A stretch of 56,712 nucleotides of DNA from the NCBI RefSeq assembly GCF_000687145.1, contig NZ_JMFG01000020.1, positions 90,001 through 146,712 of the forward strand, written 5' to 3'. This document shows, piece after piece, positions 7,800 to 47,658 of the stretch; positions within the stretch are counted from its first letter, which is position 1, and each line of letters begins with the position of its first letter. Source of the stretch: Thermoanaerobaculum aquaticum (GTDB taxonomy: Bacteria > Acidobacteriota > Thermoanaerobaculia > Thermoanaerobaculales > Thermoanaerobaculaceae). A program made the translations under genes and the position numbers. The notes beneath the pieces are model-generated. The model was not told the origin of the DNA and did not search any database. It was given only the letters and a program-made list of their open reading frames with translations.

Positions 7800-7806
7800 A
7801 TGTGCG

Positions 7807-7812
7807 TATAAT
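7807..7812 (+). promoter_or_regulatory. -10 element (TATAAT) for the nuo genes
   Basis: A perfect TATAAT lies 64 nt before nuoB, in the gap after the transglycosylase gene. The -35 region is poor. It suggests separate transcription of the nuo genes from the upstream operon. Confidence 0.5.
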
Positions 7813-7875
7813 GCTCTTGGCTCTGGGAAGCTCGTCGCCCAGGTCCGGGTTCTTATTAAGGGGAGGGCGCGCAAC

Positions 7876-25491: not shown

Positions 25492-28400
25492 TTACGCCAT
25501 CTGGCGTTGGGCCAGGAGGGCGAACTTGCCGCCCTTGGCCATGAGCTCCTGGAAGCTGCCCTCTTCAATGATTTTCCCGCCTTCCAGGTAGCAAATGCGG
25601 TCGGCGTTGATGATGGTGGAAAGCCGGTGGGCAATGACGATGCGTGTGGCTTGCAGTTTTTCGATGCTTTCCATGACCACCGCTTGCGAGCGGTTGTCCA
25701 GGGCCGAGGTTGCTTCGTCAAAAATCATGATCCTCGGCTTGCGCACCAAGGCCCGGGCAATGAGCACCTTTTGCCTCTGCCCGCCGGAAAACCCACCGCC
25801 GCCCTCAGAAATGTAGGTGTGCATGCCCATGGGCATTTGCGAAATATCCTCCGCAAGCCCAGCCAAGGCGGCGGCCTCCCACGCGGCCTGTACCGGCAGC
25901 CCCGAGGAGCCCACGATGTTGCGGTAGATGTCAGTGGGCAAGAGGGTGGAGTTCTGCAGTACCACGCCAATTTGCTGCCGCACTTCCCGCAAATCCAGGG
26001 TTGCCAAATCCTGCCCGTCGTAGTACACCGCGCCCCGGGTGGGTGTTTCAAAGCCCAAAAGGATGCGCATGAGCGTGGATTTCCCGCAACCCGAAGCGCC
26101 CACAAAGGCAATGAACTCGCCGGGCTTAATGTGAACCGAAAGGTCGTTGAGGATCCACGGGCCATCTTCGCTGTAGCGGAAGGAAACGTGGGACACTTGG
26201 ATTTCACCGCGAAGCTTCCCTGGATAAGCCCGCGCTTCGTCCAGCTCTGGCGGCGTGGTCACAATGGGTTTCAAGCGCTCGTAAATCGGTACAATGCGCA
26301 GCATGTCCAAAGACGCATCGCCCAAACCCTGCAGCGCAGCCACAAAGGCAGAAAAGGCGGCGTTAAAGGCAATGAAATCACCGGTGGTAATAGAAGGGGG
26401 CTGGCCCTTAGCCAGGGCTGCTTCCTGAATTTTCCACAGCACGTAGAATATGCCCAATGATGAAAGCACTGGAAAGCCCGACGTCAGGACTTGAATGGCG
26501 TTTTTGATTTGGCCGATGCGGAACAAAAGCCGACGCTGCTGAGCGTACGCTTTAGCCCACGTTTTAAAAGCGTGGTTTTCGGCGCCAGCCACCCTGATTT
26601 TTGGCACACCAGTAATGAACTGCAGCACCATGCCGGTAATGGTTCCGCGCAACCCCATCTCCTGCCGTTCCTGGCGCAAGCGTAGGTAGTTGGCGGTGGT
26701 GGTGGCCGCAACGTACAAGAACGAAATGCCCATGCCGGCGGCGGCCAACAGCAAGCTGTATTTGGCCATCAAAAATACGTAAAAAATCGAGCTCAAAAAG
26801 CCCAGGATGGAGTTGATGCCGGCACCGGCCACCAGCGCACGGATCTTGTCCACCCCCTGGGCGCGATCTGCCAAGTCGCCGGCGGTGTACTGACGCAAAG
26901 CGTTGGAGGGCAAATTTAACAGGCGATCCCAAAGCGCCGCTTGGATGGAGTAATCCATCTTTCCCTGGATTCGCAAAATGGCAATGGCCTGACACACCTT
27001 AAAGGCGCTGGAAACCAACGCCCCCACCAAGAGGCCCACCACAAACTGCCACAAAAGCGCCCGGTCCGCTTGGGGAATGGCAGTGTCAAAAAGCCGGCCG
27101 GTGAAATAGGGAGGGATGGTGCCCAAGAGGCCCAGCCCCACCCCCATGGCCACCACCCATCGCACGTCCGGCTTCAAGCCCCGGAGGCCAAAGCGAATCA
27201 GGTCCCGGGCGGAAAGCGGGCCATCGGGGAAGGGACGGTAAAACACGTAGCCAAAGCCCGAAAGACGCTGAACCACAGCCTCGGTGACCAGGCCGCGCTC
27301 GCCGGTAGCCGGGTCCACGTACTCGTAAGCTTTGGCCCCCTTGGGCACCAGCGCCACCGGGCCTCCGCCCTCCTCCCACGCGCCCAAAATGGGGCCTTGG
27401 TCCCGGCGGTACCAGTCGTCCCTGAGAGCCACCTGCCGCACCTGAAAGCGGGAGGCCTTGGCCACGGCTTGTAAACGGGTGCGCAAATCGGCGCGTTTGT
27501 CCACCTCCGGGTGGTCGCGGACGCTCATCCCTAGGGCCTCGCCCACCAGCCGCACAGCGTCCAGCACCGGGTCGCGGCTGGGACCGGCCATGTGCCCCGC
27601 TTCTTCCTGCCCCTCGGCCATGACCCCGGCAATTTCCCGCTCCGCCTCTTCCCCAGCAGCGCGCGCGTGCTCGGCTTTCACCCGCAAGCGGTGCAGCTCA
27701 TCCACAAGCCCCAAGCGCTTGTTGATGAACTCGCAGCGGCACACGATTTCGTGGAAGCTGGCCAGACCTGCCCAAAAAGCCGGCGTGGCTATGGCCTCAG
27801 CCGTGGCATGGACCCGCACCACCGTGGCCTGGTCGGCGGGGTTAGCGGCAATCATCCAGGTATCGGTGGCCAAAGGGAAAACCGCCCGCAATCGGCTCAG
27901 CTGCTCCAAAAGATCCCCGGCTTGGGCGCGCGCCTGCTGAAGCGGCTCCCACCCCACAAACAGCAGCTCGCCAGCTACAACTTCGAGCCAGCTCACCTCC
28001 CGCCCACCGCGCAGGCACCCACCGTTGGGCACCTCCACCGATGCCCCTGCGGTGGCCACCACCGTGGGCGGAGGTCCGCCACCAAGGGAAGCGGCAAAAG
28101 CCGAAGCAACAGTTTGAACCCATGCGTCCACCAAAGCCGCCAGCTCTTGCCGGAAGCGCTCCTGCTTGGCGAACACCTTCAGCTGGCTCAAGGCGACCTC
28201 GATAACCTTGGTCCCGCCCTTGCCCACCGCCAAGATGCCGGCTCCCAGGCCAAAGCGCTTGAAATCCATGCCGAAAATGAGGTTGCCGGGACCCAGCGTG
28301 CAAAAGTGCGCCCGCGCCCCCTGCGGTTCGCCGCGATCGTCCAAGGGCACGGTAAACAGCACCACTTGCCCCTCGCTCACGTACCAAGCGGTTGTTTCGT

Positions 28401-28920
28401 CGCCAATAACCCAGGGGGTGTTGCCGCTCACCTGCCGGGTTTGGCCCCATTGGGCCAGCGCTTCGCTTAAGGTCGCGGACAGCTCCACCGAAGGCTGGTA
28501 CGCGGGGGGTGGGGGAGCCAGAGGAGCCGCAGAAGGCGGTGCCGGAGGCGCTGGCGCAGCCGTGGGCACCTCCAGCCTCACCGTGGCCTCCTGCTCCTCC
28601 TCGGCTCCCAAGTGAAAAACGAAAACCGTAGCCCCCAGGCGGAAGCTTTCGCCGTTCTGAAGCTGGTGTTCGGCGACCCTTCTTCCCCCCACCCAAACGC
28701 CGTTGGCCGAGCCTAAATCAGCCAAAAGCCAGGTCCCATCCACCAGCTTGAGCTCGGCGTGCCGCCGGGACATGGCTTTGTCCTGAACCGCCAATTGGCA
28801 ATCCGGGGAACGCCCCAAAACGAAAGACACAGCCTCCAACGGGATGGCCTTTCCCACCAGTGCCGAATCCGGCGACTCGCTGATCTTCACGAAGGCGGGG
28901 CGGGGAGGTTTGCTGGCCAT
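25492..28920 (-). CDS. NHLM-type ABC transporter (ABC2) with N-terminal FHA domain
   Basis: 1142 residues. Residues about 10-105 form an FHA domain (VLGRSPDCQL, SRRHAEL, DLGSANGVWVGG), the phosphothreonine-binding fold. A Pro/Ala-rich linker carries EATVRLEVP (T113). The central part matches the second ABC protein of NHLM bacteriocin systems, with a cNMP-like fold region and no peptidase. A six-helix transmembrane domain covers roughly 570-870. The nucleotide-binding domain has FVGASGCGKST, FSGGQRQKVLIARAL and IMIFDEATSALD. Last gene of the lanthipeptide operon; its start overlaps the stop of the C39 exporter. It probably partners that exporter. The FHA fusion is the unusual part. Confidence 0.9.
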   Translation of the reverse strand: MASKPPRPAFVKISESPDSALVGKAIPLEAVSFVLGRSPDCQLAVQDKAMSRRHAELKLVDGTWLLADLGSANGVWVGGRRVAEHQLQNGESFRLGATVFVFHLGAEEEQEATVRLEVPTAAPAPPAPPSAAPLAPPPPAYQPSVELSATLSEALAQWGQTRQVSGNTPWVIGDETTAWYVSEGQVVLFTVPLDDRGEPQGARAHFCTLGPGNLIFGMDFKRFGLGAGILAVGKGGTKVIEVALSQLKVFAKQERFRQELAALVDAWVQTVASAFAASLGGGPPPTVVATAGASVEVPNGGCLRGGREVSWLEVVAGELLFVGWEPLQQARAQAGDLLEQLSRLRAVFPLATDTWMIAANPADQATVVRVHATAEAIATPAFWAGLASFHEIVCRCEFINKRLGLVDELHRLRVKAEHARAAGEEAEREIAGVMAEGQEEAGHMAGPSRDPVLDAVRLVGEALGMSVRDHPEVDKRADLRTRLQAVAKASRFQVRQVALRDDWYRRDQGPILGAWEEGGGPVALVPKGAKAYEYVDPATGERGLVTEAVVQRLSGFGYVFYRPFPDGPLSARDLIRFGLRGLKPDVRWVVAMGVGLGLLGTIPPYFTGRLFDTAIPQADRALLWQFVVGLLVGALVSSAFKVCQAIAILRIQGKMDYSIQAALWDRLLNLPSNALRQYTAGDLADRAQGVDKIRALVAGAGINSILGFLSSIFYVFLMAKYSLLLAAAGMGISFLYVAATTTANYLRLRQERQEMGLRGTITGMVLQFITGVPKIRVAGAENHAFKTWAKAYAQQRRLLFRIGQIKNAIQVLTSGFPVLSSLGIFYVLWKIQEAALAKGQPPSITTGDFIAFNAAFSAFVAALQGLGDASLDMLRIVPIYERLKPIVTTPPELDEARAYPGKLRGEIQVSHVSFRYSEDGPWILNDLSVHIKPGEFIAFVGASGCGKSTLMRILLGFETPTRGAVYYDGQDLATLDLREVRQQIGVVLQNSTLLPTDIYRNIVGSSGLPVQAAWEAAALAGLAEDISQMPMGMHTYISEGGGGFSGGQRQKVLIARALVRKPRIMIFDEATSALDNRSQAVVMESIEKLQATRIVIAHRLSTIINADRICYLEGGKIIEEGSFQELMAKGGKFALLAQRQMA

Positions 28921-31130
28921 CAGTGCTTGATGAGCTCGGCGTACAAGCCGGGCTGGTCCTTAAGCTCGTCGTGGGTGCCGCGCTGAACGATCTTTCCTCG
29001 CTCCATGACGATGATTTCGTCGGCGTCGCGAATGGTGGAAAGCCGGTGAGCAATGATCACGCAGGTGCACCCCCGCCGCCGCACCGCTTCGTCCACCCAC
29101 AGCTCGGTGGCCGGGTCCAAAGCTGACGTAGCCTCGTCCAAAACCAAAATCGTGGGGTCCCCGACCAGGGCCCGGGCAATTTCCAGCCGCTGCCTTTGCC
29201 CTCCGGAAAAGTTGCGGCCCCCCTCTTCCACCCGGGCGTCGTACTTGTCGTTGCGGGCTTGGATGTCGTCGTCAATGGCGGCGTCCCGACACGCTTTGGT
29301 TACCGCCGCCCGCGGTAGGGTGCTGTCCCACATGGTGACGTTTTCGTAAACCGTGCCGCCAAAAAGGAAGATGTCCTGATCCACGAAGGCCAAAGAGTTG
29401 CGCACCAGCTCCGGGGGGAGCTTTTCCACCGGCACCCCATCGAAGAGAATTTGCCCTGACCAAGGTTTGTAAAGCCCTGCCAATAGCTTCGAGATCGTGG
29501 ACTTGCCGCTACCGCTGCGTCCCACGATGGCAACCCGTCTCCCTGGGCGAACTTTCAAATTGAAGTTTTCGATAAGCGGCGGGTCCAGGGGGCTGTAGCC
29601 AAAGGTGACGTCGCGAAGCTCCACCTCCCCAGCCAGCTTGGGAACTTCGGCAGCTTTCACTTCCCCCGAAGGCCGCCCAACCCGGCGGTACTGCTCGTCC
29701 TGGGGAAAGCGCAGCACGTCGTCCAGGCGGTTCATGTCGGCTTCCAGCTCCTGTACTGCCGCACCAAACCCCACCAGGGTGGATAGCGGCTTGTTAAAGG
29801 AAGCCATGAGGCTTTGGTACGCCACCAGCATGCCCACGGTCATGCCCCCGTCCATCACCTTCATGGAGCCCAAAAGGAGGATCATCGCGGTGGTGAGGTT
29901 AGAAACCAAAGGCGGAACCGCGTTCAAAAGCTGGGACAGCGTGTCCAGTTCCTGTTGGGAGCGGAGGGCCTTGGCCTGGTACCCGGCCCACCGCGCAAAA
30001 AACTCCGATTCGGCTCCTGTAGCCTTGATGGTTTCCATGAGCTGCAGGCCGTTCATGGCGGTCCCCATGAGCTTGCCGTAGTCCTGCTGCATGCGTCGAG
30101 AGGCATCCACCCGACGGCGGGCCACAAGTTTCATCCCGATTACGTTTGCAAGCCCCAAGAAAATGCAAAGCAACGTAAGGGGAACGTCGTAAAGCATCAT
30201 GAGCACCGCGTAAAAAACCACCAAGATCGAATCAATGACCGTGGTGGTAAGCTTTCCCGAAATCATTTCCGCTACTTTGTCGTTAATTTGCAAACGGGAG
30301 CCGATTTCTCCAGCGTACCTTTGTGCAAAATAGGAAACCGGCAAACGCAAGATATGGTTGAAAAATCCTGTGGAGTTTGATAGGGCAATTTTGGTCTCAA
30401 GCCGCAAGAGGTAGTACTCCTGCAGGTAGGTAAGGCCCATGCGCAAAAGTGCAGTCAAAAGCATGCCGATTAAAAGCGGGGTGACGATGGACTGTCTGCC
30501 GCCTACCAGGTAGTCGTCAATAAACACTCGGGAAAACGTGGGTATCACCAAACCCGGAACCACCAAGAAAAGCCCACACAAAAGCACAAACAAAATGGCT
30601 TCTTCCGAGCCCTCCAAACGCCGGCGGAAAGCCGCTGCCATGCTGGGCTTTTCACCGGCTTCCCGAAATTCCGGTCCCTTTTCAAAGGTCAGCACCACGC
30701 CGGAAAACGAGGCGTCCAGCTCTTCCAGCGTCACCACCCGCGGTCCCGAAGCGGGATCGTTAAGGTACACCTTGCCGCCTTTGAACCCCTCCAGCACCAA
30801 GAAGTGGTTCATGTTCCAAAACAGGATCACCGGCAGCGGCAGGTCGTAAAGCTTGTCGATGTTCTCGTATTTAAAGCCCTTGGCCACCAGGCCGTACTTG
30901 CGGGCGGCGCGCAGGACGTTGGACGCTTTGGACCCATCCCGGGAAACCCCGCACTCCACCCGCAGCTCTTCCAGCGGCACGATCCGCCCGTGGTAGCCCA
31001 GGATGATGGCCAGAGCTGCCGCCCCGCACTCCACCGCCTCCATTTGCAGAACGGTGGGGGTCCTCACCCGCTTGTTGGGCGGCGGGGGCAGTGGCGCGCT
31101 TTGCGGTGTTTCCTGCGCTGCAGTAGCCAT
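28920..31130 (-). CDS. NHLM-type peptidase/permease/ATPase exporter (C39 PCAT, ABC1)
   Basis: 736 residues. The N-terminal C39 peptidase domain carries the catalytic triad C35 (QMEAVECGAAAL), H109 (NMNHFLVLEG) and D125 (YLNDPASG). It cuts leader peptides after a double glycine, as present in the precursor at 39955-40293. A transmembrane domain follows (about 165-450), then a nucleotide-binding domain with IVGRSGSGKSTISK, FSGGQRQRLEIARAL and ILVLDEATSALDP. ATG 31130 was chosen because it lies 7 nt after the HlyD stop; the longer frame to 31184 would overlap HlyD. It matures and exports the lanthipeptide across the inner membrane. Confidence 0.95.
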   Translation of the reverse strand: MATAAQETPQSAPLPPPPNKRVRTPTVLQMEAVECGAAALAIILGYHGRIVPLEELRVECGVSRDGSKASNVLRAARKYGLVAKGFKYENIDKLYDLPLPVILFWNMNHFLVLEGFKGGKVYLNDPASGPRVVTLEELDASFSGVVLTFEKGPEFREAGEKPSMAAAFRRRLEGSEEAILFVLLCGLFLVVPGLVIPTFSRVFIDDYLVGGRQSIVTPLLIGMLLTALLRMGLTYLQEYYLLRLETKIALSNSTGFFNHILRLPVSYFAQRYAGEIGSRLQINDKVAEMISGKLTTTVIDSILVVFYAVLMMLYDVPLTLLCIFLGLANVIGMKLVARRRVDASRRMQQDYGKLMGTAMNGLQLMETIKATGAESEFFARWAGYQAKALRSQQELDTLSQLLNAVPPLVSNLTTAMILLLGSMKVMDGGMTVGMLVAYQSLMASFNKPLSTLVGFGAAVQELEADMNRLDDVLRFPQDEQYRRVGRPSGEVKAAEVPKLAGEVELRDVTFGYSPLDPPLIENFNLKVRPGRRVAIVGRSGSGKSTISKLLAGLYKPWSGQILFDGVPVEKLPPELVRNSLAFVDQDIFLFGGTVYENVTMWDSTLPRAAVTKACRDAAIDDDIQARNDKYDARVEEGGRNFSGGQRQRLEIARALVGDPTILVLDEATSALDPATELWVDEAVRRRGCTCVIIAHRLSTIRDADEIIVMERGKIVQRGTHDELKDQPGLYAELIKH

Positions 31131-31137
31131 AGACAAC

Positions 31138-32280: not shown

Positions 32281-32283
32281 AAC

Positions 32284-34230: not shown

Positions 34231-34238
34231 GGTCCACC

Positions 34239-36191
34239 TCACCGCTGGGTCCTGGGCAAAGCCCAAAGATCACCCACCACCAGGTACTCGCCTTCCGGCG
34301 TTTCTTCCACGAGGGTTCCGGTATCGAAGCGCAGCTTGGCCAGGGTCTGCGCCACCGCAAATTGCGCTTGAATCACGGTGAGATCGGCTTCCACCGCCCG
34401 CTGCTCGGTGAGGATCGTGTCAATAAGCGTGGAACGCCCGAAACGGAACTTTTCCAGTTCGTTTTCAAAAGCTTGCCGAGCTGCTTGCGCGGAAACTTTG
34501 GCTGCTTCCAGCTGCGTAAGGAGTTGTTCCAAGGTAATGCGGGTTTGCAAGACATCAAGGCGTACCCGACGCTCGGCATCGGCTGCAGAAATTTGCCTTT
34601 GCGCCCACAGGGCCTGGCGCTGTTCCAACTGTCCGCGCTGGGTGAGATTAGCCAGGGGCTTTTCATAAGCAAAACTGAGGCTCGCCGAGGGACCAGCCCA
34701 ATTGCCAAAAAGCGCTCGGCCCAGGTTGTGCCCCATGTTGCCGCCAGCATCGGAAAGGCCGGCATAGGAAATCTTGAAGTCCAGGTCCTTCTTGGCAGCC
34801 AAATCAATGACCGCCGCCCGCCAAAGCACCCGCCCGGACCTCTCCAGGTCGCGGGCTGCGGCCACGTCCAAGCGGCGGCTGGCACCCATCTCGGCCAGAG
34901 CCTCTGCGGAAACCGCCGCCAGGTCAGAAGGCGAAGGCGGAGGCGGAAAGCCCTCCACGGCTTGGGGTAACGAGGAGGGCTCGGCGATGCTCACGCCCAT
35001 GGCGGTGGCCAGCGCCACCTGCGCCTGAGCCAGGCTGCTCTTGGCTGCTTGCAGCTGGGAGGTGACCTCGGCTTGTCTCGCTTGCATGCGGGAGATCTCG
35101 GCACGGGGGATCTCGTCGGCTTCGGCCAACGCCTGCACCAGCTCCAAAAGACGCCCCTGGAGCTCGGAAGAACGCCCGTAGACCGCCACGGTTTCCTGGG
35201 CACGGTAGAGGTCGAGGTAGGCAAAAACCGTGGCGAGCACGCTTTGCGAGGCGGTAAACGCCAGGGTCTTGCGGCTGGCCTCCCAGTCAATCAAGCTCGA
35301 TTGCTCGGCAGCTCCCGCCGATTCTACGCCCTTGCCACGCCCCAGTGGGATGTTCACGGAAAAACCCAAGGTGGCGTTGTACGTGTCCTCCCGTCCCGGA
35401 CCGCCAAACTTGTCGCTCTTGGGTTTGCCCTGGTAGCGCAGGCTTTCACCGGAGAGGTTCATAAACGGCGTGAGGGTCAATCCGGTGCGGTAGTGCTTGG
35501 AAAGCTGCAGGTCAATGGTGCCCCTTTGGGTTTGCTCCACTTCCGCCACGGGCCCTAGCTGTCGCAGCTCCTGCCTTCCACCCACCGCCGTGGCCAGCTC
35601 TTCGTTTCTGGCAATGGTGAGCTCACCCAAACGCGATTCGATCCAGTTGATGATGTCCTGGCGGATTTGGGCTTGCTGGGCGGGGGAGGCATTGCGATAC
35701 AGGACGAGCATCGCCTCCCACTGTGCCTGCAATTGGGGGTCCAAAAAACTTACACCAGCCGGAATCAAACCGCTCTGCAAATCCGAACGAGCTTGCAACA
35801 ACTGTTGAATCATTTGATCGTATTGGGCCATTTTGGCTTCAGCCTTGGCGATCTCGTCCCGAATCTCGTCCCGCTTTTTTTTCTGATCCAGCTTTTCTGC
35901 AGCGGATAAGGGCCTCTGCGTGAACTCATAGGAAACGTTGCCAATAAGCGTAAGGTCAAAGGCTCCTGCCGCCTGCAGCGAAAGCCCTTCCTTTGCCTTC
36001 ACATCTTCCCGGCTTAATGCCAAATTGGGCTCATGGGCCAAGGTTAATTTGAGAGCTTCCGAAAGCGTCAGCTCGCGTTTTTGAAGAGGGGGGAAACTCG
36101 GCGCTTCAACCCCCCGTCCCTGCGACCACGCCGTGCTCCCAAGCCCCAGAAGCCCGCAAACGGCCATAGCCACAGCTTTTCCCTTTCGCAT
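34239..36191 (-). CDS. TolC-family outer-membrane factor, first copy
   Basis: 650 residues. Signal peptide 1 to about 24 (VAMAVCGLLGLGSTAWSQ). The first repeat carries an inserted charged coiled-coil segment (LDQKKKRDEIRDEIAKAEAK), and the second repeat ends near TGTLVEETPEG. The region VNIPLGRGKGVESAGAAEQ matches the equivalent part of the second copy. TolC proteins form trimeric channels through the outer membrane and periplasm. GGGGAGG precedes the ATG, 15 nt after the GNAT gene. Confidence 0.9.
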   Translation of the reverse strand: MRKGKAVAMAVCGLLGLGSTAWSQGRGVEAPSFPPLQKRELTLSEALKLTLAHEPNLALSREDVKAKEGLSLQAAGAFDLTLIGNVSYEFTQRPLSAAEKLDQKKKRDEIRDEIAKAEAKMAQYDQMIQQLLQARSDLQSGLIPAGVSFLDPQLQAQWEAMLVLYRNASPAQQAQIRQDIINWIESRLGELTIARNEELATAVGGRQELRQLGPVAEVEQTQRGTIDLQLSKHYRTGLTLTPFMNLSGESLRYQGKPKSDKFGGPGREDTYNATLGFSVNIPLGRGKGVESAGAAEQSSLIDWEASRKTLAFTASQSVLATVFAYLDLYRAQETVAVYGRSSELQGRLLELVQALAEADEIPRAEISRMQARQAEVTSQLQAAKSSLAQAQVALATAMGVSIAEPSSLPQAVEGFPPPPSPSDLAAVSAEALAEMGASRRLDVAAARDLERSGRVLWRAAVIDLAAKKDLDFKISYAGLSDAGGNMGHNLGRALFGNWAGPSASLSFAYEKPLANLTQRGQLEQRQALWAQRQISAADAERRVRLDVLQTRITLEQLLTQLEAAKVSAQAARQAFENELEKFRFGRSTLIDTILTEQRAVEADLTVIQAQFAVAQTLAKLRFDTGTLVEETPEGEYLVVGDLWALPRTQR

Positions 36192-36206
36192 ATGACCTCC
36201 CCTTTC

Positions 36207-37151
36207 TCATCCAGCCCGCGTTACCCATTGCGGTTGGTGCTGCAGTTTTTTTGTGCTTCCTAAGGTCCACCGTGCCTGCTGCGCCCACGGGGCCATGTGC
36301 TTTTCTACAAACTGCACCATGGTGGGGTGGCGTACCGGAGCAACAAAGGAAGCCAGCGTAAATCCCGCTTCTACCATGCGATGGATGGACTCGGAAAAAA
36401 GCGGCAAAATTCTGCCCCGCCGCCCCCAGTCTTTGCGGATAAAGCTGCAGGTAAAACGCAACCACTGCGCATTTAATGCATGGTTAATCACCCAGCCCAT
36501 AATGCCTTCCGGGGCGCGCAAGGCCACGCTGGTGCGCTCCTCGAACCCCTCCTCCACGTATCGCCAGGGAACGAGGTCGGGGGCAATCCATGGGCTTTTC
36601 TCCTGCGAGACCTTCAGGGCTTCCATTTCCTCGCGGGTTACGCTGACAAAGGGCACGATTTCGCACCCTTCCCGCACAGGAAAACGGTCCAGCCAGGGAA
36701 AACGCAGCGCCTCCTGGGCGGTGAACAACACCGAAAGGGTTCGTCGCTCGGGCGGGCCCCAGCCGAGCTCCTGGGACACCTTCGCCCACCACTGGCTCCC
36801 GCTGCCGCCCTCCGTCCACACCACCCCCAGGCTGGCAAAACTGGCGTTGGATGCCACGGTTTCCGCGGCCTGCACCAGCTTCTTGCCCCAACCCTTCCCT
36901 CGGTGCTCGCCGACCACGTATACCGAAAGCAGTTCCGCGGTTTCCCGCTCTCCTAAGGGCAGGGCTAAAAGAGCCAGGCCCACCGCTTCGCTTCCCAGGA
37001 AAGCCCCCAGGGCCACGGGCTGCACCGGCGGCGACCCCGCTTCACCTAAAAGCTTGGGGCCCACCTCAACGGTCAAGAGATGCCGATAGGCCGGGAACGT
37101 CATGGGCAGAAAGACCGGGTCAGCGGGCGGAGCAAGCAGCCTTATTTCCAT
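36207..37151 (-). CDS. GNAT-fold protein, probably double-domain acyltransferase
   Basis: 314 residues. The N-terminal half has a clear acetyl-CoA-binding motif A (VYVVGEHRGKGWGKKLVQAAE). The C-terminal half (about 215-305) resembles a second, degenerate GNAT domain (ILPLFSESIHRMVEAGFTLASF), without a good motif A. ATG 37151, behind GGAGGG, overlaps the LanM stop by 10 nt, so the two are translationally coupled. It could acylate the modified peptide (N-terminus or Lys) or give self-protection; neither is shown. The longer frame to 37283 would lie inside lanM. Confidence 0.8.
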   Translation of the reverse strand: MEIRLLAPPADPVFLPMTFPAYRHLLTVEVGPKLLGEAGSPPVQPVALGAFLGSEAVGLALLALPLGERETAELLSVYVVGEHRGKGWGKKLVQAAETVASNASFASLGVVWTEGGSGSQWWAKVSQELGWGPPERRTLSVLFTAQEALRFPWLDRFPVREGCEIVPFVSVTREEMEALKVSQEKSPWIAPDLVPWRYVEEGFEERTSVALRAPEGIMGWVINHALNAQWLRFTCSFIRKDWGRRGRILPLFSESIHRMVEAGFTLASFVAPVRHPTMVQFVEKHMAPWAQQARWTLGSTKKLQHQPQWVTRAG

Positions 37152-39877
37152 GGCTTCGCTCCCTCCACTCCTCCGACCAAAACTGAACCCAACTCCCCCG
37201 GTAGCAACAGTCGAGAAAGGTGGAAAAGGAAGCCAGGCAAACCGTCGAAAAGGCCTCCTTTCGGATCCAGTTCCCGCCGCCAAAGCCCCGAGCTGAAGAG
37301 CAGCGCGGCCAGCTTCGTCGCCTCGTCCATGAGCCGCTCGTCGCCAGCGAGCTCGCCGATGATCAACGAGATTTCGCTACGACCAATGCTACCACAGCAC
37401 AAGCTCAAGGGGCTGGAGAGCTTCAAGGGAACAAGTCGGGCGTAGGCCTCTGCGTTTTGGCGGGCAAGGTGTAGGGTCACCAATTCGGCAGGCACCAGCT
37501 TCCTGGCCGCCAGGGCCCCCGCCGGTCCATGGCACCAGCCGTTAAGGCCCACCGAAACGGTTTCACCGGCTGGAAGCTCGGCCTCCGCCCACCAGGTGCC
37601 CGCCCGGGGCTCCTGCTCCAAGAGCCACACCGCCTCCCGAGCCCACCGCAGGTTACCGGTCGCCTTACCTACCCGCAAAAGCGCTGCCGCCACCCCCGAA
37701 ATGCCGTGGGCGAAGCCCGGCTTCCAAATGCTTTTGCCCCCGTTGGCCGCCGCCCCTGGAACTGCGACCAAGAGACTAGCCGCCCCGCTCTCTAATGCCT
37801 CATGCAACTCAGGCAGGCCCCGGACGCTTTCCGCAACCCCCAAAAGCAAGCCGGCAAGACCCGCCTCCACGTCCAGGTGTTCCGGGGGCTCGGATCTGCC
37901 CAAGGCCTCCTTTGCAAGACCACGGGCCAATTCGCAAAACGCTGGCTCTTCAAGCCAGCAACCGCAAGCAAAAAAGGCGTAAACCACGCCGCCGAAACCG
38001 GAGGCATAACCCGGAGGCCAGCTTCCCGGGATTCCACCTTGAAGCTCCCCTTGGAGCCGTTCTAGGTATTGCCGCGCCCGTTGCCTGGCCGTTGCATCGC
38101 CGCTGGCCCTAGCCCAGGCGGCCCAGGCCAGGGCCCAACCCGCCCATCCCCGGCGCAGGAAGGGCCCAACTTCCAGGCCGAGAGCGGCCTCGCCCTGGCG
38201 CAACGCGGCAGCTACCTCGCTGGCGGCTTGCCGCAACGCCGCCCTTGGGTCTTCCCTGAGGCTGTGGAGGCTCGCCGCTAAGACCGCCAGCTGGTGCTTG
38301 ATGAACTTGTGATCCAACCGCCTCAGCCTGAGCAGGATTTGCTGTTGGCCGGAACGCCGCACCACGCCGCAGCGGCGGGCTGCCGGCAGCGTGAGGCGGG
38401 GAACCGCAAAGCTGTGAAGAGCCAGCGTTTCCGCACGCAGGAACGGGACGAGAGCGCGGATGTCCATACCCGCGGCCAAAGGCCCGCGCCATCGGGTTTC
38501 CGCTAACAGACTGAGCTGCCAGCACTCGCGAACTTTGGAGTTTTGCAAGGCCGAGCGAAAGAAGGAGGCATAGGCCTCGCTGGGACGGGCCACCCAGCGG
38601 ACCTGGAGCCGCGAAAGCTCATTAAATGGCAAACGAAGCTGCCCACTTCGCCAGGCCCACAGCAGCTTATCCAAAGCATCGCGAGCACCCGCCACAATCT
38701 CCTCTCGGTATTGGCAGGGATCCACGGGTTGTCCGGCAAAAAGCGGTAGGGATCTCGCCCCCGGGCGGTGGCCACCGAGGAAAGCTCCATCGTCCCGCAG
38801 GCCGGAGGGACCATTCATGGGGAACGTCACCAGCCCTGAGGCCAAGATGTCGCCATCTTCTTTTGGGTCGAAGACCGTGAGCGGGCGGCACCAGGTTTCG
38901 CCGTCCACCACCACGGGTCCATCCTCTCCTGCCACCACGTTTTCCCAGTGCAAATCTGAAAGCCCCAAAAGCCAAGCCACAGCCGCCAGGTGGCCAGCCG
39001 TGAAGAACCACCGCTGCACCTGTTCGCGAGCAAGAAGGCTGGCCTGGGACACCTCTGCTACCCATCCGTATCGCGACCGAGCCACCATTTCCGGCAAGGG
39101 CGGCAGCGTAATCCCCACCGGGCGCAAGGCATCAAAAAAGACCGCCAGCACCCGCTCCGGCTCCAAAGAACGGGGCTTGTAGAAAAAGGCCAGGCCCGGG
39201 GCCGAGACCAAGCGAGCTACGGTTTCCCCCTCCTGGTGCCGGTCGGAAAGGCCGAAGGTTAGCTCGGTCACCTGCAGGCTTCGCCCGCCAAGCAGACTCT
39301 GCTCGATTTCGGACCGATCCCGCTGGAGTCTTTGGGCCAGGGTCCGACAGCTGCGCAACCATTGGCTAAAGCGGGTGGCCAGCAAGCGTGCCGAAAAGGG
39401 TCGCTCCTCAAAGGCTTCCCAGGCCCCAGCCGTTGGATTGACAGCCGCCGCTTCCAGGAGTTGCCGGCAATGGGTTTCCAGCTGCTGAGCAATAGCGGCG
39501 GGCACCCTTAGGGAAAAGAGCGGAGCCGCAAAAACTCGGCGGCACTTTGGGAGGACGACCTCCGCCAAAAGCCGCGGTACTTCACCAATAACTGCTCGCT
39601 CAGGTATTACCCGCTGCAAGAGCAAAAGCCACTGCGGTGTTTCTTCTAATAAACAGCAAAGGCCCCGCTGCAGGCGGGCCAAAGCCTCGGTTTCGGTCAG
39701 GCCCTCCGCCGTCAAGCGCCTGGAGAAAAGGTCACTGGCACCCCCGCTCACCGCCTGCCGCCAACCTTGGGCTACGGGTGTTGCTGCAGTTTCCTGAAGA
39801 GGGCGCGACCCAGTATTCTCCCCAAAAGCCAAAATCTCCTGTAGAAACGCCCCACCACGGATGAGCCTTGAGGCCAT
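37142..39877 (-). CDS. lanM: Class II lanthipeptide synthetase LanM
   Basis: 911 residues. The N-terminal dehydratase half shows the LanM kinase-like signatures FYKPRSLE, LLGLSDLHWENVV and VVVDGETWC; it phosphorylates Ser/Thr and eliminates phosphate. The C-terminal LanC-like cyclase half has the zinc ligands C782 (NGWCHG) and C827/C828 (LCCGSIG), plus the AHGISG motif. Cys-Cys-Gly instead of Cys-His-Gly is the mark of the ProcM-like group, which tends to be promiscuous and to form rings with different geometry. GGAGGG lies 12 nt before ATG 39877, and the longer frame to 40015 would run into the precursor gene. It modifies the peptide encoded just upstream. Confidence 0.95.
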   Translation of the reverse strand: MASRLIRGGAFLQEILAFGENTGSRPLQETAATPVAQGWRQAVSGGASDLFSRRLTAEGLTETEALARLQRGLCCLLEETPQWLLLLQRVIPERAVIGEVPRLLAEVVLPKCRRVFAAPLFSLRVPAAIAQQLETHCRQLLEAAAVNPTAGAWEAFEERPFSARLLATRFSQWLRSCRTLAQRLQRDRSEIEQSLLGGRSLQVTELTFGLSDRHQEGETVARLVSAPGLAFFYKPRSLEPERVLAVFFDALRPVGITLPPLPEMVARSRYGWVAEVSQASLLAREQVQRWFFTAGHLAAVAWLLGLSDLHWENVVAGEDGPVVVDGETWCRPLTVFDPKEDGDILASGLVTFPMNGPSGLRDDGAFLGGHRPGARSLPLFAGQPVDPCQYREEIVAGARDALDKLLWAWRSGQLRLPFNELSRLQVRWVARPSEAYASFFRSALQNSKVRECWQLSLLAETRWRGPLAAGMDIRALVPFLRAETLALHSFAVPRLTLPAARRCGVVRRSGQQQILLRLRRLDHKFIKHQLAVLAASLHSLREDPRAALRQAASEVAAALRQGEAALGLEVGPFLRRGWAGWALAWAAWARASGDATARQRARQYLERLQGELQGGIPGSWPPGYASGFGGVVYAFFACGCWLEEPAFCELARGLAKEALGRSEPPEHLDVEAGLAGLLLGVAESVRGLPELHEALESGAASLLVAVPGAAANGGKSIWKPGFAHGISGVAAALLRVGKATGNLRWAREAVWLLEQEPRAGTWWAEAELPAGETVSVGLNGWCHGPAGALAARKLVPAELVTLHLARQNAEAYARLVPLKLSSPLSLCCGSIGRSEISLIIGELAGDERLMDEATKLAALLFSSGLWRRELDPKGGLFDGLPGFLFHLSRLLLPGELGSVLVGGVEGAKPWK

Positions 39878-39954
39878 CGTCAGAAGAATCCCTCCGGAAA
39901 AGGCGGCCCACGGTCGCCCGGCGCGCAGAAGGCGACCGTGGGCCTGTTTTTCGT

Positions 39955-40293
39955 TTAAAAGAGGCTGGCGTTGATTTCCACCCGGGTGCCGAAGCCCAAA
40001 CCTTGGACTTCGCACTTGTAGGTGTCCTTCTTGCCACCGGCCACCTGCTCCAGGTCAGCGTCGGAAAGCTCTTGGCCTTCTTTTGCCACATGGGGAATGA
40101 TCACGTAAAACTCGTTGGGCTTTTCCTCGATGACCTTCACCTGCACCGAAGGCGGAATGGAAGTCCCCAGCTGCGCTCCCACCACCTCCCGGGGCTTGGC
40201 CAGGAGGGCCTTGCGGTACTCCGGGTTCTTGGTGGCAAACCCGGCGATCAGATCGTTGACTTCCCCTCTGGTTAACGTGACAGCTTCTGGCAT
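39955..40293 (-). CDS. NHLP-type lanthipeptide precursor peptide
   Basis: 112 residues. Residues 1-87 are a nitrile-hydratase-alpha-like leader ending in ELSDADLEQVAGG, the double-glycine site for the C39 exporter. The predicted core (88-112) is 25 residues with one Cys (C94) and three Ser/Thr (T91, T103, S110). T91 and C94 form a T-Y-K-C spacing suited to one small methyllanthionine ring; the other two could become dehydrated. GGAGG precedes the ATG. It is the first gene after the sigma-54 promoter, 41 nt from the predicted transcription start. A single-copy precursor with one Cys is unusual for a LanM of the Cys-Cys-Gly group. Confidence 0.93.
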   Translation of the reverse strand: MPEAVTLTRGEVNDLIAGFATKNPEYRKALLAKPREVVGAQLGTSIPPSVQVKVIEEKPNEFYVIIPHVAKEGQELSDADLEQVAGGKKDTYKCEVQGLGFGTRVEINASLF

Positions 40294-40344
40294 TTTTGTT
40301 TCCTCCTTTCTCTTGCAGCTCTTTGCGCGCGCGCTTTTGCCAAG

Positions 40345-40360
40345 AGCAAGAGGCGTGCCA
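40345..40360 (-). promoter_or_regulatory. Sigma-54 (-24/-12) promoter of the lanthipeptide operon
   Basis: On the minus strand TGGCACG-CCTC-TTGCT (40360-40345) matches the consensus TGGCACG-N4-TTGCW at every position. The GG (-24) and GC (-12) are correctly spaced. Start of transcription would be near 40334. The gene for an activator of sigma-54 holoenzyme lies 1.6 kb upstream on the same strand. Confidence 0.9.
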
Positions 40361-40371
40361 AGCTTGCCAGA

Positions 40372-40437
40372 AACGTAACACGTTGTACCAAAAGGACTTG
40401 TCTAGAAGCGAAAGGAACGCAAATAGAGCTATCGCTC
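40372..40437. promoter_or_regulatory. Candidate activator-binding palindromes
   Basis: Two inverted repeats lie upstream of the sigma-54 promoter: AACGT-AAC-ACGTT (40372-40384, about -38 to -50) and ATAGAGC-TATC-GCTCCAT (40423-40440, arms with one mismatch, about -90 to -106). The second is at a usual enhancer distance. Neither is proven. Confidence 0.35.
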
Positions 40438-40464
40438 CATTGCTGGCGTCGGGCCTCCAGGTGC

Positions 40465-41946
40465 CTAGGTTTCCCTTGTAAACAGCGCTAACACTTCCGA
40501 AAGGGGCTGGCGGAGTCGGAATTCCATTTCTTCCACGTCACAGAGGGCAAGGCGCCTGCGAAAACGCCAGGTTCCCACCCGAAGCGGGGGTTGGTGCGCT
40601 AGCGCCGCACGTACCGGAGCCAAAAGCTCTTCCAGACGGGCGTGCATGCGCTCCCAGCACCAGGAAAAGCCTTCGGCAAACGCCTCGCGCACAGCCGCGG
40701 ATGCTTCTCGCCAGGGGAAAAACTCGTTGCGGGCTCGCACGATGGTCTTGGGGGTAATGACCTGCCGCTGGGCGAGGCTGCGGGCTTGAACCAACGTCAT
40801 CCGCGCCAGCGCCCCCGAAGCCTCGCTCTGAGCCACCAGTTCCGGGGGGAGGGCAAGGTTTAAAAAACAGTGCTCAAAGTCAATGAGCGTGAGACGCTCC
40901 CGCCCTTTGACATCAACGGTCACAAACGCGTTGCGGGGACGGATGTCGGCGTTAGCGAAGGCGTAGGCAAAGGCCAGGTGGGCCCCGAGGTCAAAGGCCA
41001 CCTCTGGATTGGGGGGCGAGGTGTAGGGCTTCCCCTTCACCGCTTGGGAGATGCCCAACGGCTCCCCATCCTCAACCACCCAGGCTTCGGGAACCGGTAG
41101 CTCTAGTCTTTGCGCTAGGGACCGGGCCAGGGCATCTACGTAGGCCGCCGCCGGATCCCAGAAGCGCTTGCAAAAGAAAAGCTCCTCCTCCTCGCCACAG
41201 GAGGCCACTACCGTGGCCAGCAGGTTGTACCGTCCCTCCTGGCCTTCGGCCAGCGGTTCAATGCGCTCCACTCGCCATGTTTTCAGCCCCAGGGCCAGCC
41301 TTTGCCCTTCAGCCAGCAGCGGGGCAAATCCGGTGTCTTCCCAGGAAAGCCAGCCCAAACGGAAAAACCGTGGTAAACGCTGCGAGCCTACCAGCAAAAC
41401 CGGAAACCCCAGCCGTCGGGCCGCCCCATCGGAGGCCTCCGAGTCTCCCACAACCAGGATTTGCGAAGGGGGCAGACCTAGCTCCTGGGATAAGCGCGAG
41501 AAAACCTCGGGGGATGGCTTGGTGATCCCCAAGTTGCACGATAAAAGCTGCGCATCAAACAACTCCCGCAAGCCCAAATCCTCAAGCACCCGGGCATGAG
41601 CTGAGGAGAGGTTAGAGACCAAGGCCAGCTTGAGCCCTCGCCGGCGTAGAAAGCGCAACACCGATAAGGCCCCCGCAGTCAGCTGCGCCTGTGCCACTTG
41701 CTCCCGCAGCGCTTGCACCAAGAGCTCCTGTCCTGGGCTTTGCGACGCCCCCGCTTGCTCCGCCAGTGCACTGACGAGCTCCTCCACTGCGGAAAAGGAC
41801 TGCCGAAGCCCAACCTGACGCACGGCGGAAAGCCACGCCCGCGCTGGCACCCCCAAAAGCTTGGGCGCCAGGCGCCGAAACCAGGGATCCGGCAGGTGCA
41901 ACAGGGTGCCAAACAAATCGCAGGCCACCGCGCGGATTTGCGTCAT
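40465..41946 (-). CDS. HAD-hydrolase / kinase-fold fusion protein
   Basis: 493 residues. Residues 1 to about 225 are a HAD domain: motif I DLFGTLLHL (D10), motif II LVSNLS, motif III Lys before PSPEVF, motif IV VVGDSEASDG. The second Asp of motif I is Phe, as in the haloacid-dehalogenase subgroup, so phosphatase activity is uncertain. Residues about 250-440 resemble a kinase or phosphotransferase fold: FANADIRPRNAFV (D334, Asn) and LTLIDFEHCF (D356) fit the catalytic loop and metal site of PI3K/HipA/APH-like enzymes. ATG 41946 overlaps the activator stop (ATGA), so the two proteins are co-produced. A role in phospho-control of the activator or of peptide synthesis is inferred only from position. 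Confidence 0.75.
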   Translation of the reverse strand: MTQIRAVACDLFGTLLHLPDPWFRRLAPKLLGVPARAWLSAVRQVGLRQSFSAVEELVSALAEQAGASQSPGQELLVQALREQVAQAQLTAGALSVLRFLRRRGLKLALVSNLSSAHARVLEDLGLRELFDAQLLSCNLGITKPSPEVFSRLSQELGLPPSQILVVGDSEASDGAARRLGFPVLLVGSQRLPRFFRLGWLSWEDTGFAPLLAEGQRLALGLKTWRVERIEPLAEGQEGRYNLLATVVASCGEEEELFFCKRFWDPAAAYVDALARSLAQRLELPVPEAWVVEDGEPLGISQAVKGKPYTSPPNPEVAFDLGAHLAFAYAFANADIRPRNAFVTVDVKGRERLTLIDFEHCFLNLALPPELVAQSEASGALARMTLVQARSLAQRQVITPKTIVRARNEFFPWREASAAVREAFAEGFSWCWERMHARLEELLAPVRAALAHQPPLRVGTWRFRRRLALCDVEEMEFRLRQPLSEVLALFTRET

Positions 41947-43070
41947 TGCGGTTTTAACTGATGGTGCCGGAGGAAATCCATGAAGCGCTGGTAGTCCGCC
42001 TCCCGCAGATGAAACAGCTGCAAAAGCCGCTTGTAGGAGTTGCCACTGTGAGCCAGCCCCCAGCGGATGATGTGCTGTACCTGCGTGCGGTTGAGGTCGC
42101 GGTTTAAAAACGCGTCGTGAACCAGATGCCAAAAGTCGCCCTTTTCCACCAGTTGGCGCACCAGCTCGTCTTCCAACCTTCTCCGGGGCGCTGGGTCCTC
42201 GCCCAAAAGCTCGATGAAGTGCTCAGGCTCGATGGTCCGCCCCTCGGCCATGGCGTAGCCCATGGTGACCACGCTGATGAGCTCACGAACGTTGCCCGGC
42301 CAACGATGCCGCGACAGCACATCCATGGCTTGGGGAGAAAACACCTTCTCCACCCCGTGCTTGGTGGCCAGACAGTGCAAGGTAAACGCCACCAGGTCCA
42401 GCCAGTCATCCCCCCGCTCGCGCAGGGGCGGAACCTGCAAGCGAAAGTAACGCAACCGGAAGTAAAGGTCCTCCCGAAAGCGATCCCCCAGCCGCAGGCT
42501 TTCCAGCGGCCTGTTGGTGGCGGCCACCACCCGCACGTCAGACCGACGTACCTTGGAATCCCCCAGCGCCTGAAACTCGCCGCTGGCCAGGGTCCGCAGC
42601 AGCATCACCTGCGCGGAAAGGTGCAAATCCGCCACTTCGTCCAGGAAAATGACCCCGCCGGTGGCTAGCTCAAAGGCTCCCTTGCGATCGGCAATGGCAC
42701 CGGTGAAGCTGCCCTTCTTATGGCCAAAGAGCTCGCTCACCGTGAGGTTAGCATCTTCAAACTGCGGGCAATTCACCGGAATAAACGGCCCACTTCGCCG
42801 TGGTGATAACAGATACAGGGCCTTTGCTAGAAGCTCCTTGCCGGTCCCCGATTCGCCCAGGAGCAGCACCGGCTCGGAAAACGGGGCAACCTTGGCGATT
42901 TTTTCCAGGAGATGCGTGAGCGCTGGCGAGCGCCCCACCAGGCACACCGCTTGGTGGTCCCCCCACACCCGGCGCGAAAGCCGGCATACGGTCCTCGCCA
43001 GCGGCACCATCCATTGCTCAGGGCGCGACGACACAATCGGCATAGGCAGGGTAAGGCGATCGCCGCTCAC
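41943..43070 (-). CDS. Sigma-54-dependent transcriptional activator (bEBP)
   Basis: 375 residues. The AAA+ domain has Walker A GESGTGKE (72-79), the sigma-54 contact loop GSFTGA (120-125; GAFTGA variant), Walker B GVIFLDEVA (139-147) and FREDLYFRL. The N-terminal 45 residues have no receiver, GAF, PAS or FHA domain, so the input signal must come from another protein. The C-terminus (about 320-375, YKRLLQLFHLREADYQRFMDFLRHH) is a helical domain in the place of the usual Fis-type HTH. It is co-translated with the HAD/kinase fusion and probably activates the promoter at 40345-40360. Divergent from the cNMP/FHA gene. Confidence 0.92.
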   Translation of the reverse strand: MSGDRLTLPMPIVSSRPEQWMVPLARTVCRLSRRVWGDHQAVCLVGRSPALTHLLEKIAKVAPFSEPVLLLGESGTGKELLAKALYLLSPRRSGPFIPVNCPQFEDANLTVSELFGHKKGSFTGAIADRKGAFELATGGVIFLDEVADLHLSAQVMLLRTLASGEFQALGDSKVRRSDVRVVAATNRPLESLRLGDRFREDLYFRLRYFRLQVPPLRERGDDWLDLVAFTLHCLATKHGVEKVFSPQAMDVLSRHRWPGNVRELISVVTMGYAMAEGRTIEPEHFIELLGEDPAPRRRLEDELVRQLVEKGDFWHLVHDAFLNRDLNRTQVQHIIRWGLAHSGNSYKRLLQLFHLREADYQRFMDFLRHHQLKPQ

Positions 43071-43084
43071 GGCACCCCCTCCGC

Positions 43085-43113
43085 TTGACGCCGCGCCAGG
43101 GCAGGCGTAGCTT
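43085..43113 (+). promoter_or_regulatory. Sigma-70-type promoter for the cNMP/FHA gene
   Basis: TTGACG and TAGCTT are separated by 17 nt. Downstream lie two near-identical strings (GGAAGGAAGCTA and GGGAGGAAGCTA), 20 nt apart, the second serving as ribosome-binding site. Confidence 0.55.
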
Positions 43114-43150
43114 TGAATGGAAGGAAGCTAATGTTCGGGAGGAAGCTACA

Positions 43151-44310: not shown

Positions 44311-44346
44311 AGCGCTCGGAACCCCCTTCCACCGCCTGGCCGGCGG

Positions 44347-45021: not shown

Positions 45022-45101
45022 AATGCCCCCTTTCTTGCGCGCCTGAAACGTTCTAGCGGCAATATAGCGCCGCCATCGAGAAGGGTCAAGCAACCCGCCA
45101 G

Positions 45102-47589: not shown

Positions 47590-47658
47590 GAGACAAATGT
47601 TGGGTTCACTTTGCATCAAGCGTCTTTTGGTGCCTGGCATTGCCCAAAGGAGGAAGCT

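What the first reader, a model, noticed from the sequence alone, without database searches (positions are those of the whole stretch)
25492..43070. Sigma-54-controlled lanthipeptide locus with its own activator
The sequence shows a perfect -24/-12 promoter (40345-40360) just before an NHLP precursor, LanM and a complete export set, and an activator gene with an intact sigma-54 loop on the same strand. Two-component or quorum systems are the usual controls for lanthipeptides; a receiver-less activator co-translated with a HAD/kinase protein is not a layout I know.
Basis: partly seen in the sequence, partly recalled or inferred. Interest (0 to 1): 0.85.

Follow-up and report, generated by a model that had tools for sequence, protein, structure and literature searches.

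The report
Sigma-54-switched lanthipeptide locus with enhancer
A peptide-making gene cluster in an acidobacterium appears to be switched on by its own dedicated activator, which reads a specific DNA tag in front of a sigma-54 promoter; the same wiring recurs in relatives and is a control type not usually described for this kind of peptide.

Summary
A perfect -24/-12 element (40345-40360, minus strand) ends 51 bases before an NHLP-leader precursor, followed by LanM and a full NHLP export set. A sigma-54 activator (GSFTGA loop, no receiver) overlaps a HAD/kinase-like gene by ATGA just upstream. The genome has one rpoN.

The activator's C-terminal domain is strongly matched in 23 of 148 class genomes; in 20 of them an NHLP precursor follows on the same contig. 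A -24/-12 element lies in 24 of 25 precursor-upstream intervals (0.04 expected). I also found the probable enhancer: TGGAGC-N4-GCTCCA palindromes (20 of 25). Four intervals carry TCGYGC-N4-GCRCGA instead, and exactly those four genomes have a changed recognition helix (YKRFMGFL for YQ[RK][FL]MDFL), with at least two coupled switches on the activator tree.

Corrections: receiver-less activators are not unusual; the HAD/kinase gene is absent from 7 of 23; the loop is GSFTGA. New: the single-cysteine precursor is far more conserved than its synthetase, and a stable hairpin separates the two genes.

All of this is inferred from sequence. The named literature searches, read mostly as capped listings, showed no report of sigma-54 control of a lanthipeptide. 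New variant of a known kind.

The parts
41943..43070 (-). Sigma-54 activator (bEBP), no receiver or sensor domain, GSFTGA loop, C-terminal HTH domain found once in this genome
   Evidence: PF00158 1.6e-56; alignment A4; C-terminal 71 aa matches only itself in the own genome and 23 of 148 class genomes at 58 bits or more
40465..41946 (-). HADk: HAD domain with motif D[LI][YF]GT plus a kinase-like C-terminal part (NADLRPRN-type, DxE); ATGA overlap with the activator
   Evidence: PF00702 in 12 of 12 aligned members; C-terminal part unmatched in Pfam; invariant residues in 12 of the 16 members, the ones aligned
40444..40459 (-). Distal enhancer (UAS) palindrome TGGAGGCCCGACGCCA (3 mismatches to the consensus)
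   Evidence: tandem pattern (up to 3 mismatches) found at this place in 4 of 4 genomes; reversed control 0
40424..40439 (-). Proximal enhancer (UAS) palindrome TGGAGCGATAGCTCTA (1 mismatch); centre 71 bases upstream of the -24 element
   Evidence: 20 of 25 intervals hold a site with at most 1 mismatch
40345..40360 (-). Sigma-54 -24/-12 promoter TGGCACGCCTCTTGCT, predicted +1 at 40334
   Evidence: 10 vs 1 control genome-wide; conserved 4 of 4 in diverged flanks; 24 of 25 intervals
39955..40293 (-). NHLP-leader lanthipeptide precursor, GG cleavage site, one Cys in the core (KKDTYKCEVQGLGFGTRVEINASLF)
   Evidence: TIGR03793 67.9 bits; alignment A1
39905..39944 (-). Stable hairpin between precursor and LanM (probable attenuator or 3'-end stabiliser)
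   Evidence: -37.3 kcal/mol, z -3.17, 1 of 200 shuffles as good; long stems after the precursor also in G001, G002, G003, G344, G440, G445, G408 (no shuffles there)
37142..39877 (-). LanM class II lanthipeptide synthetase (longest ORF to 40015)
   Evidence: TIGR03897 259 bits (below cut-off 304), DUF4135, LANC_like; aligned to LicM2 and CylM; WCHG and LCCG zinc motifs
36207..37283 (-). GNAT-fold protein
   Evidence: PF00583 1.3e-7; position kept in relatives
34239..36191 (-). Outer-membrane efflux protein (TolC-like) 1
   Evidence: PF02321
32284..34266 (-). Outer-membrane efflux protein (TolC-like) 2
   Evidence: PF02321
31138..32280 (-). NHLM HlyD-type adaptor
   Evidence: TIGR03794 325 bits
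28920..31184 (-). NHLM ABC1: C39 peptidase/permease/ATPase
   Evidence: TIGR03796 1105.6 bits
25492..28920 (-). NHLM ABC2 permease/ATPase with an N-terminal FHA domain
   Evidence: TIGR03797 878 bits; PF00498 1.1e-17 at 34-96
43085..43897 (+). Divergent cNMP-binding/FHA protein (longest ORF), candidate trans-acting controller of the activator
   Evidence: PF00027 6e-27, PF00498 1.5e-13; seen near the activator in 20 of 23 class genomes

Best explanation
The locus is a sigma-54 regulon that, as far as the sequence shows, has one target. A receiver-less activator binds two tandem palindromes (form TGGAGC-N4-GCTCCA, centres 71 and 91 bases upstream of the -24 element) and, as a AAA+ ATPase, opens RNA polymerase/sigma-54. 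This drives the NHLP precursor first and, past a strong hairpin that favours precursor mRNA, LanM, GNAT and the export genes. LanM installs at most one (methyl)lanthionine ring per peptide, since the core has one Cys; ABC1 (C39) cuts after GG, and the HlyD, ABC2 and TolC-like proteins export the product. The activator has no sensor, so its signal must come from a partner. The divergent cNMP/FHA protein is the best candidate; HADk is an accessory in most loci. Shown by sequence: parts, conservation, enhancer and its co-variation. Inferred: binding, sigma-54 dependence, product, signal.
For: Promoter exact, 10 vs 1 control genome-wide. Footprint in four genomes. -24/-12 in 24 of 25 intervals against mean 0.04, maximum 1 in 300 resamples; 4 hits elsewhere in 641,068 strand-bases of the first 16 genomes' loci. 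Enhancer with at most 1 mismatch in 20 of 25 intervals, variant form in 4 of 25. In two genomes (G352, G020) a second precursor has its own promoter and enhancer. Enhancer variant and helix change coincide: changed helix in 4 of 4 genomes with the variant, 0 of 18 with the first form, with at least two switches on the tree. DNA-binding domain found once in the genome; C-terminal helices 346-352 and 357-369 in a stretch of pLDDT 80-89 place the changed residues on one helix. RpoN present.
Against: No expression, binding or product data. G490 has the enhancer but no recognisable -24/-12 element; G408 has the promoter but no enhancer within 1 mismatch. The strict form TGGCAY-N5-TTGC is met in 15 of 25 (my count); the relaxed form was chosen after seeing the sequences. 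The second enhancer form was defined from the four intervals lacking the first. Intervals of related genomes are not independent, and the double switch rests on one branch (support 0.925). In G442 and G444 the activator is on another contig than the precursor; in G442 the activator is followed by 2.8 kb without HADk or precursor. LanM is below the TIGR03897 cut-off. Of 17 sampled phylum genomes with an NHLP leader above the cut-off, 7 have the close activator, so this wiring is not general to NHLP loci. No evidence names the signal or the role of HADk.
Confidence: 0.86

Rival explanations
1. The -24/-12 match is a chance resemblance and the operon is driven by a housekeeping promoter, with the activator serving another target.
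For: Single matches to a degenerate consensus can be fortuitous; up to 1 mismatch the window expects about 3.4 matches by chance.
Against: The match is exact; 24 of 25 homologous intervals keep the element; the activator gene is linked; the reversed control is 10-fold rarer genome-wide.
Confidence: 0.03
2. Sigma-54 drives the operon, but the TGGAGC palindromes belong to a different regulator (for example one working with the cNMP/FHA protein, or a global factor), and the neighbouring activator acts without them or elsewhere.
For: No binding data; the cNMP/FHA gene is also a neighbour in 20 of 23 class genomes.
Against: The palindrome variant tracks the activator's recognition helix, 4 of 4 vs 0 of 18 genomes, with at least two switches. 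The cNMP/FHA protein shows no DNA-binding domain in Pfam. With up to 3 mismatches the tandem site is confined to this locus in 4 genomes, except for a repeat at a contig end of G000.
Confidence: 0.08
3. HADk is the sensor: its kinase-like half phosphorylates, or its HAD half dephosphorylates, the activator or an FHA ligand, and so gates the lanthipeptide operon.
For: ATGA overlap with the activator; catalytic-type residues invariant in the 12 aligned members; FHA domains on the exporter and on two neighbouring proteins.
Against: Absent from 7 of 23 class genomes that keep activator, promoter, enhancer and precursor, and from G408. HAD motif I lacks the second Asp of phosphatases. Structure model unusable.
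Confidence: 0.2

Closest known systems
Sigma-54/EBP control of natural-product genes in Myxococcus xanthus (Ma, Welch, Garza 2021, PMC7910581; passages read)
   Same: Sigma-54 promoter and enhancer-binding protein directly drive biosynthetic genes
   Different: Those passages concern PK/NRP genes and EBPs such as Nla28; the text has 0 hits for lanthi-, lanti- and bacteriocin. Here the target is a lanthipeptide and the activator is encoded in the locus, with its own enhancer
RpoN/Sfa2 control of the Pseudomonas H2-T6SS (PMC8855297; title and abstract opening in a search listing only)
   Same: A secretion cluster activated by RpoN and an EBP
   Different: Different cargo and machine; activator families not compared here
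Receiver-less EBPs PspF and HrpR/S (recalled)
   Same: AAA+ plus DNA-binding domain, no sensor; regulated in trans
   Different: The C-terminal domain here has no Pfam HTH hit; regulating partner unknown
NHLP/LanM class II lanthipeptide loci with NHLM export (TIGR03793/03794/03796/03797), prochlorosin-like by the CCG zinc motif (recalled for ProcM)
   Same: Precursor leader, LanM with LCCG motif, C39 exporter, ABC2, HlyD
   Different: Sigma-54 wiring, FHA-fused ABC2, two TolC-like genes, one conserved core (comparison with prochlorosins recalled, not tested)

Membership tests
Sigma-54-dependent promoter | GG at -24 and GC at -12 with TGGCAC-N5-TTGCW consensus | tested here: met
   exact match; 24 of 25 homologous intervals keep TGGCAY-N5-NTGC
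Sigma-54-dependent promoter | Transcription lost without RpoN | not testable with these tools
   no expression data; rpoN is present
Bacterial enhancer-binding protein | AAA+ domain with Walker A/B, GAFTGA-type loop, arginine finger | tested here: met
   PF00158 1.6e-56; GESGTGKE, GSFTGA, FLDEV, FREDLYFRL in the sequence; motif names recalled
Bacterial enhancer-binding protein | DNA-binding domain with upstream activating sites | tested here: inconclusive
   predicted helices 346-352/357-369; palindromes co-vary with the helix; no Pfam HTH hit and binding itself untested
Two-component response regulator (NtrC type) | N-terminal receiver domain | tested here: not met
   no receiver in Pfam scan; AAA+ domain starts at residue 44
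NHLP-leader RiPP precursor (TIGR03793) | Leader above curated cut-off, GG motif | tested here: met
   67.9 vs 50.9 bits; VAGG
Class II lanthipeptide synthetase LanM (TIGR03897) | Model score above curated cut-off | tested here: not met
   259 vs 304 bits; LanM-like by domains, a divergent protein by this model
Class II lanthipeptide synthetase LanM (TIGR03897) | Dehydratase catalytic residues and LanC zinc ligands | tested here: met
   DLHWEN...DGE, WCHG, LCCG; aligned to LicM2 (both domains) and CylM (dehydratase domain); roles recalled
Class II lanthipeptide synthetase LanM (TIGR03897) | Product contains (methyl)lanthionine | not testable with these tools
   needs mass spectrometry
HAD phosphatase | DxD motif I | tested here: not met
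   D[LI][YF]GT in 12 of 12 aligned members; best solved relatives include haloacid dehalogenases and phosphatases

The most novel reading that the evidence does not exclude
A locus-private sigma-54 switch, spread through a class of Acidobacteriota, makes a strongly conserved, single-ring lanthipeptide on demand. Because the precursor is conserved far better than its synthetase within the family, the peptide would be a signal or envelope component rather than a diversifying antibiotic. Its synthesis and export would be gated by phospho-recognition: a cNMP/FHA protein on the activator side, an FHA domain on the exporter, and in most loci a HAD/kinase-like protein.
Probability: 0.25. Interest if true: 0.78.

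Novelty: new variant of a known kind. Interest (0 to 1): 0.62.

Why it matters
Many RiPP clusters are silent in culture because their trigger is unknown (general knowledge). This locus names the probable promoter, enhancer and activator, so the idea that the operon can be turned on by supplying one protein is directly testable. The two enhancer/helix pairs offer a natural specificity swap for a DNA-binding domain without a Pfam model hit. The conserved single-cysteine core raises the possibility that some lanthipeptides are housekeeping signals rather than weapons.

Tried and rejected
Rejected: the minus-strand ORF 43067-43888 as a gene upstream of the activator (no Pfam hit; plus-strand cNMP/FHA gene instead). 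Rejected: HADk as a defining part (absent in 7 of 23). Rejected: 'receiver-less' as unusual (and recall).

Led nowhere: the HADk structure model (mean pLDDT 47.9) was not searched further. The activator model is poor outside its C-terminal domain (mean 44.3); its Foldseek hits at E <= 0.001 are AAA+ activators and say nothing on the DNA-binding domain. The solved-structure search with 12 HADk sequences gave 163 hits; the best 60 shown name no kinase. The repeat at G000:C10:54146-54201 lies near a contig end, past the stop of an open frame; I judge it unrelated but did not test it. Helical phasing of enhancer-to-promoter distances is suggestive only (at period 10.5, 0.035% of uniform draws reach the value for 23 related intervals and 2.2% after thinning to 16; period 10 gives 5.6%, period 11 fits best; distances entered by hand).

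Weaker matches not counted: one search found the C-terminal domain in 28 of 148 genomes at E <= 0.001; five of these (G004, G007, G008, G026, G034) match at 43.3 bits or less. Of those five I looked at G008 and G034; neither stretch shows a precursor by my search.

Counts dropped: three gaps examined (G442a, G444b, G444c) hold no -24/-12 element and were left out of the 25, because G442a is not directly before a precursor and the other two lie between tandem precursors; the second and third precursors of G444 thus show no promoter of their own. Gaps before the second precursor of G490 and before the second and third of G477 were not counted. The G352b, G490 and G442b intervals and the G020b and G477 intervals were cut by hand upstream of the precursor, not from the previous stop; several intervals run a little into the precursor gene. 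In one search no precursor stop was found by my pattern in G015, G023, G029, G028, G056 and G477, so their hairpins were not examined; G394 and G005 gave weaker folds.
Full report
Observation. The window is G000:C20:90001-146712 of a 2.66 Mb genome. A scan with the LanM alignment returned four loci: two in Thermoanaerobaculum MAGs, one in a Thermoanaerobaculaceae MAG (the contigs of G002, G001 and G003 by length) and one distant in a Deltaproteobacteria MAG (28 percent). G001 and G002 are of the window's genus, so the host is an acidobacterium of or near Thermoanaerobaculum. The minus-strand order is activator, HADk, promoter, NHLP precursor, LanM, GNAT, two TolC-like proteins, HlyD, ABC1 (C39) and FHA-ABC2. 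The promoter TGGCACGCCTCTTGCT is exact and is the only match with up to 1 mismatch in the window. Genome-wide there are 10 exact matches against 1 for the reversed control. The genome has one rpoN hit and 21 Sigma54_activat hits, 15 of them above 190 bits.

Four-genome footprint. In G000, G001, G002 and G003 the gene order is kept as far as the contigs reach, with two broken frames: HADk in G003 and the first TolC-like gene in G002. The 171-178 base gap before the precursor has diverged, except for TTGGCAY-N5-TTGC, two tandem palindromes of the form TGGAGC-N4-GCTCCA spaced 20 bases, and a GCGCGCA-type motif near the predicted start. The tandem pattern with up to 3 mismatches is found at this place in 4 of 4 genomes. 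The only other hits are a repeat in G000; the reversed control gives 0.

Class-wide test. HADk occurs in 16 of 148 class genomes at E <= 1e-20. The activator's C-terminal domain is matched at 58 bits or more in 23 of 148: those 16 plus G029, G020, G056, G477, G467, G394 and G028, which lack HADk. On the same contig a precursor follows the activator, with or without HADk between, in 20 of 23 (with a gap of about 1.8-1.9 kb before the precursor in G490 and G477). In the other three (G469, G444, G442) the pieces lie on different or ending contigs. In G442 the activator contig runs 2.8 kb on without HADk or precursor, so its layout differs. A further case, G408, from another class of the phylum, has activator, promoter and precursor without HADk. 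TGGCAY-N5-NTGC lies in 24 of 25 intervals in front of precursors (23 genomes); Markov resamples give mean 0.04, maximum 1. The strict TTGC form is met in 15 of the 25. G490 is the miss. In G352 and G020 a second precursor has its own promoter and enhancer. The wiring is not general to NHLP loci: 41 of 396 sampled phylum genomes match the NHLP leader, 17 above the cut-off, and 7 of those 17 have the close activator.

Enhancer and activator. A TGGAGC-N4-GCTCCA site with at most 1 mismatch is in 20 of 25 intervals (resample mean 0.02). Where the promoter is also present, the nearest site is centred 59-128 bases from the -24 element. Four more intervals (G344, G440, G444, G445) have TCGYGC-N4-GCRCGA palindromes with the same geometry; this second form was defined from those four. 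G408 has neither within 1 mismatch, but holds TGGAGGCCTCACGCCA. The activators of these four genomes carry YKRFMGFL near the C-terminus (in G444 the activator is on another contig), whereas the 18 genomes with the first form carry YQ[RK][FL]MDFL. The model gives this stretch as the last helix of a helix-turn-helix (346-352, 357-369; pLDDT blocks 80-89). On a FastTree tree of the AAA+ part, G440 (second form) is sister to G443 (first form, support 0.925) inside the second-form group, so enhancer and helix changed together at least twice if that branch is right. This is the strongest evidence that the neighbouring activator reads the palindrome. The domain occurs once in the own genome.

Product. 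Each complete precursor printed has a single Cys after the GG; the G352 frames run on and their ends are uncertain, G442 and one of G020 are cut by contig ends, and G015, G023, G029, G028 and G056 were not read in full. The precursor is 97, 89 and 86 percent identical between G000 and G002, G001, G003, while LanM is 60, 49 and 43 percent. Over precursor codons 1-95, 3, 8 and 8 differences change the residue; in LanM 364 of 910, 476 of 929 and 515 of 909 compared codons do. LanM keeps the aligned dehydratase residues and WCHG plus LCCG in G000-G003. A simple motif search found no WCHG in the G005, G344, G445, G467 (LanM reaches the contig end) and G477 loci; this was not followed up. A 15-pair hairpin follows the precursor gene, and long stems recur there in relatives. 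It probably favours precursor mRNA over enzyme mRNA (inference).

Control input. The activator lacks a sensor. A cNMP/FHA gene is near it in 20 of 23 class genomes, mostly on the opposite strand. G490 and G028 have little or no upstream sequence, and G056 has none in about 4 kb. HADk has a HAD domain with D[LI][YF]GT in place of DxD and a kinase-like half with invariant NADLRPRN-type and DxE residues in the 12 of 16 members aligned, unmatched in Pfam. 'Kinase-like' rests on these motifs, read by eye; the structure model failed. Its role is open.

Literature. Searches listed no paper whose title or abstract opening concerns sigma-54 control of a lanthipeptide or NHLP locus. Searches found 0 papers, one search listed 8 of 8 and 1 of 1; the others are capped (20 of 46, 12 of 175, 12 of 1,989, 15 of 1,095, 15 of 398). 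Passages were read in PMC7910581, PMC12316311 and PMC10663231; everything else was seen as a listing. The library holds open papers only. PMC7910581 treats sigma-54 control of PK/NRP genes in Myxococcus. PMC12316311 has no hit for Acidobacteri-, bacteriocin, lanthi- or NHLP. PMC10663231 reports a Sigma-54 domain in 2 percent of response regulators of the clusters it surveyed.

Verdict. A conserved, locus-linked sigma-54 switch for a lanthipeptide operon: a known kind of regulation and a known kind of product in a combination I did not find described. Regulation, binding and product remain to be shown at the bench.

Noticed in passing
window 40324-40334: GC-rich GCGCGCGCGCA at the predicted start site; a TGCGCGCA- or GCGCGCA-type motif sits at the same place in G001, G002 and G003.
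   Followed up: no
window 25492-28920: FHA domain fused to the NHLM ABC2 exporter; the N-terminal part is also aligned in the ABC2 of G002, G005, G344 and G352.
   Followed up: partly
window 43894-47453: STAS protein, outer-membrane barrel and a protein-kinase-like protein (Pkinase 29.9 bits, cut-off 31.7) lie next to the locus and are syntenic in G001, G002 and G003.
   Followed up: partly
window 47611-48549 (+): Another FHA protein (PF00498 3.7e-21), so three FHA domains lie within about 20 kb.
   Followed up: no
L043, about 7524-8230 (G003): HADk is broken into two frames in G003 while activator, promoter and precursor are intact, consistent with HADk being dispensable or with an assembly error.
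   Followed up: no
L040:13729-15681 (G002): The first TolC-like gene is split into two frames in G002.
   Followed up: no
L148 (G444), L162 (G477): Three tandem NHLP precursors per locus.
   Followed up: partly
L044, L045 (own genome): Two other exact -24/-12 sites of the genome lie within about 400 bases downstream of activator genes, suggesting more sigma-54 targets beside their activators.
   Followed up: no
L184 (G114:C38): A related activator beside an ABC-transporter fragment, with a -24/-12 site downstream.
   Followed up: no
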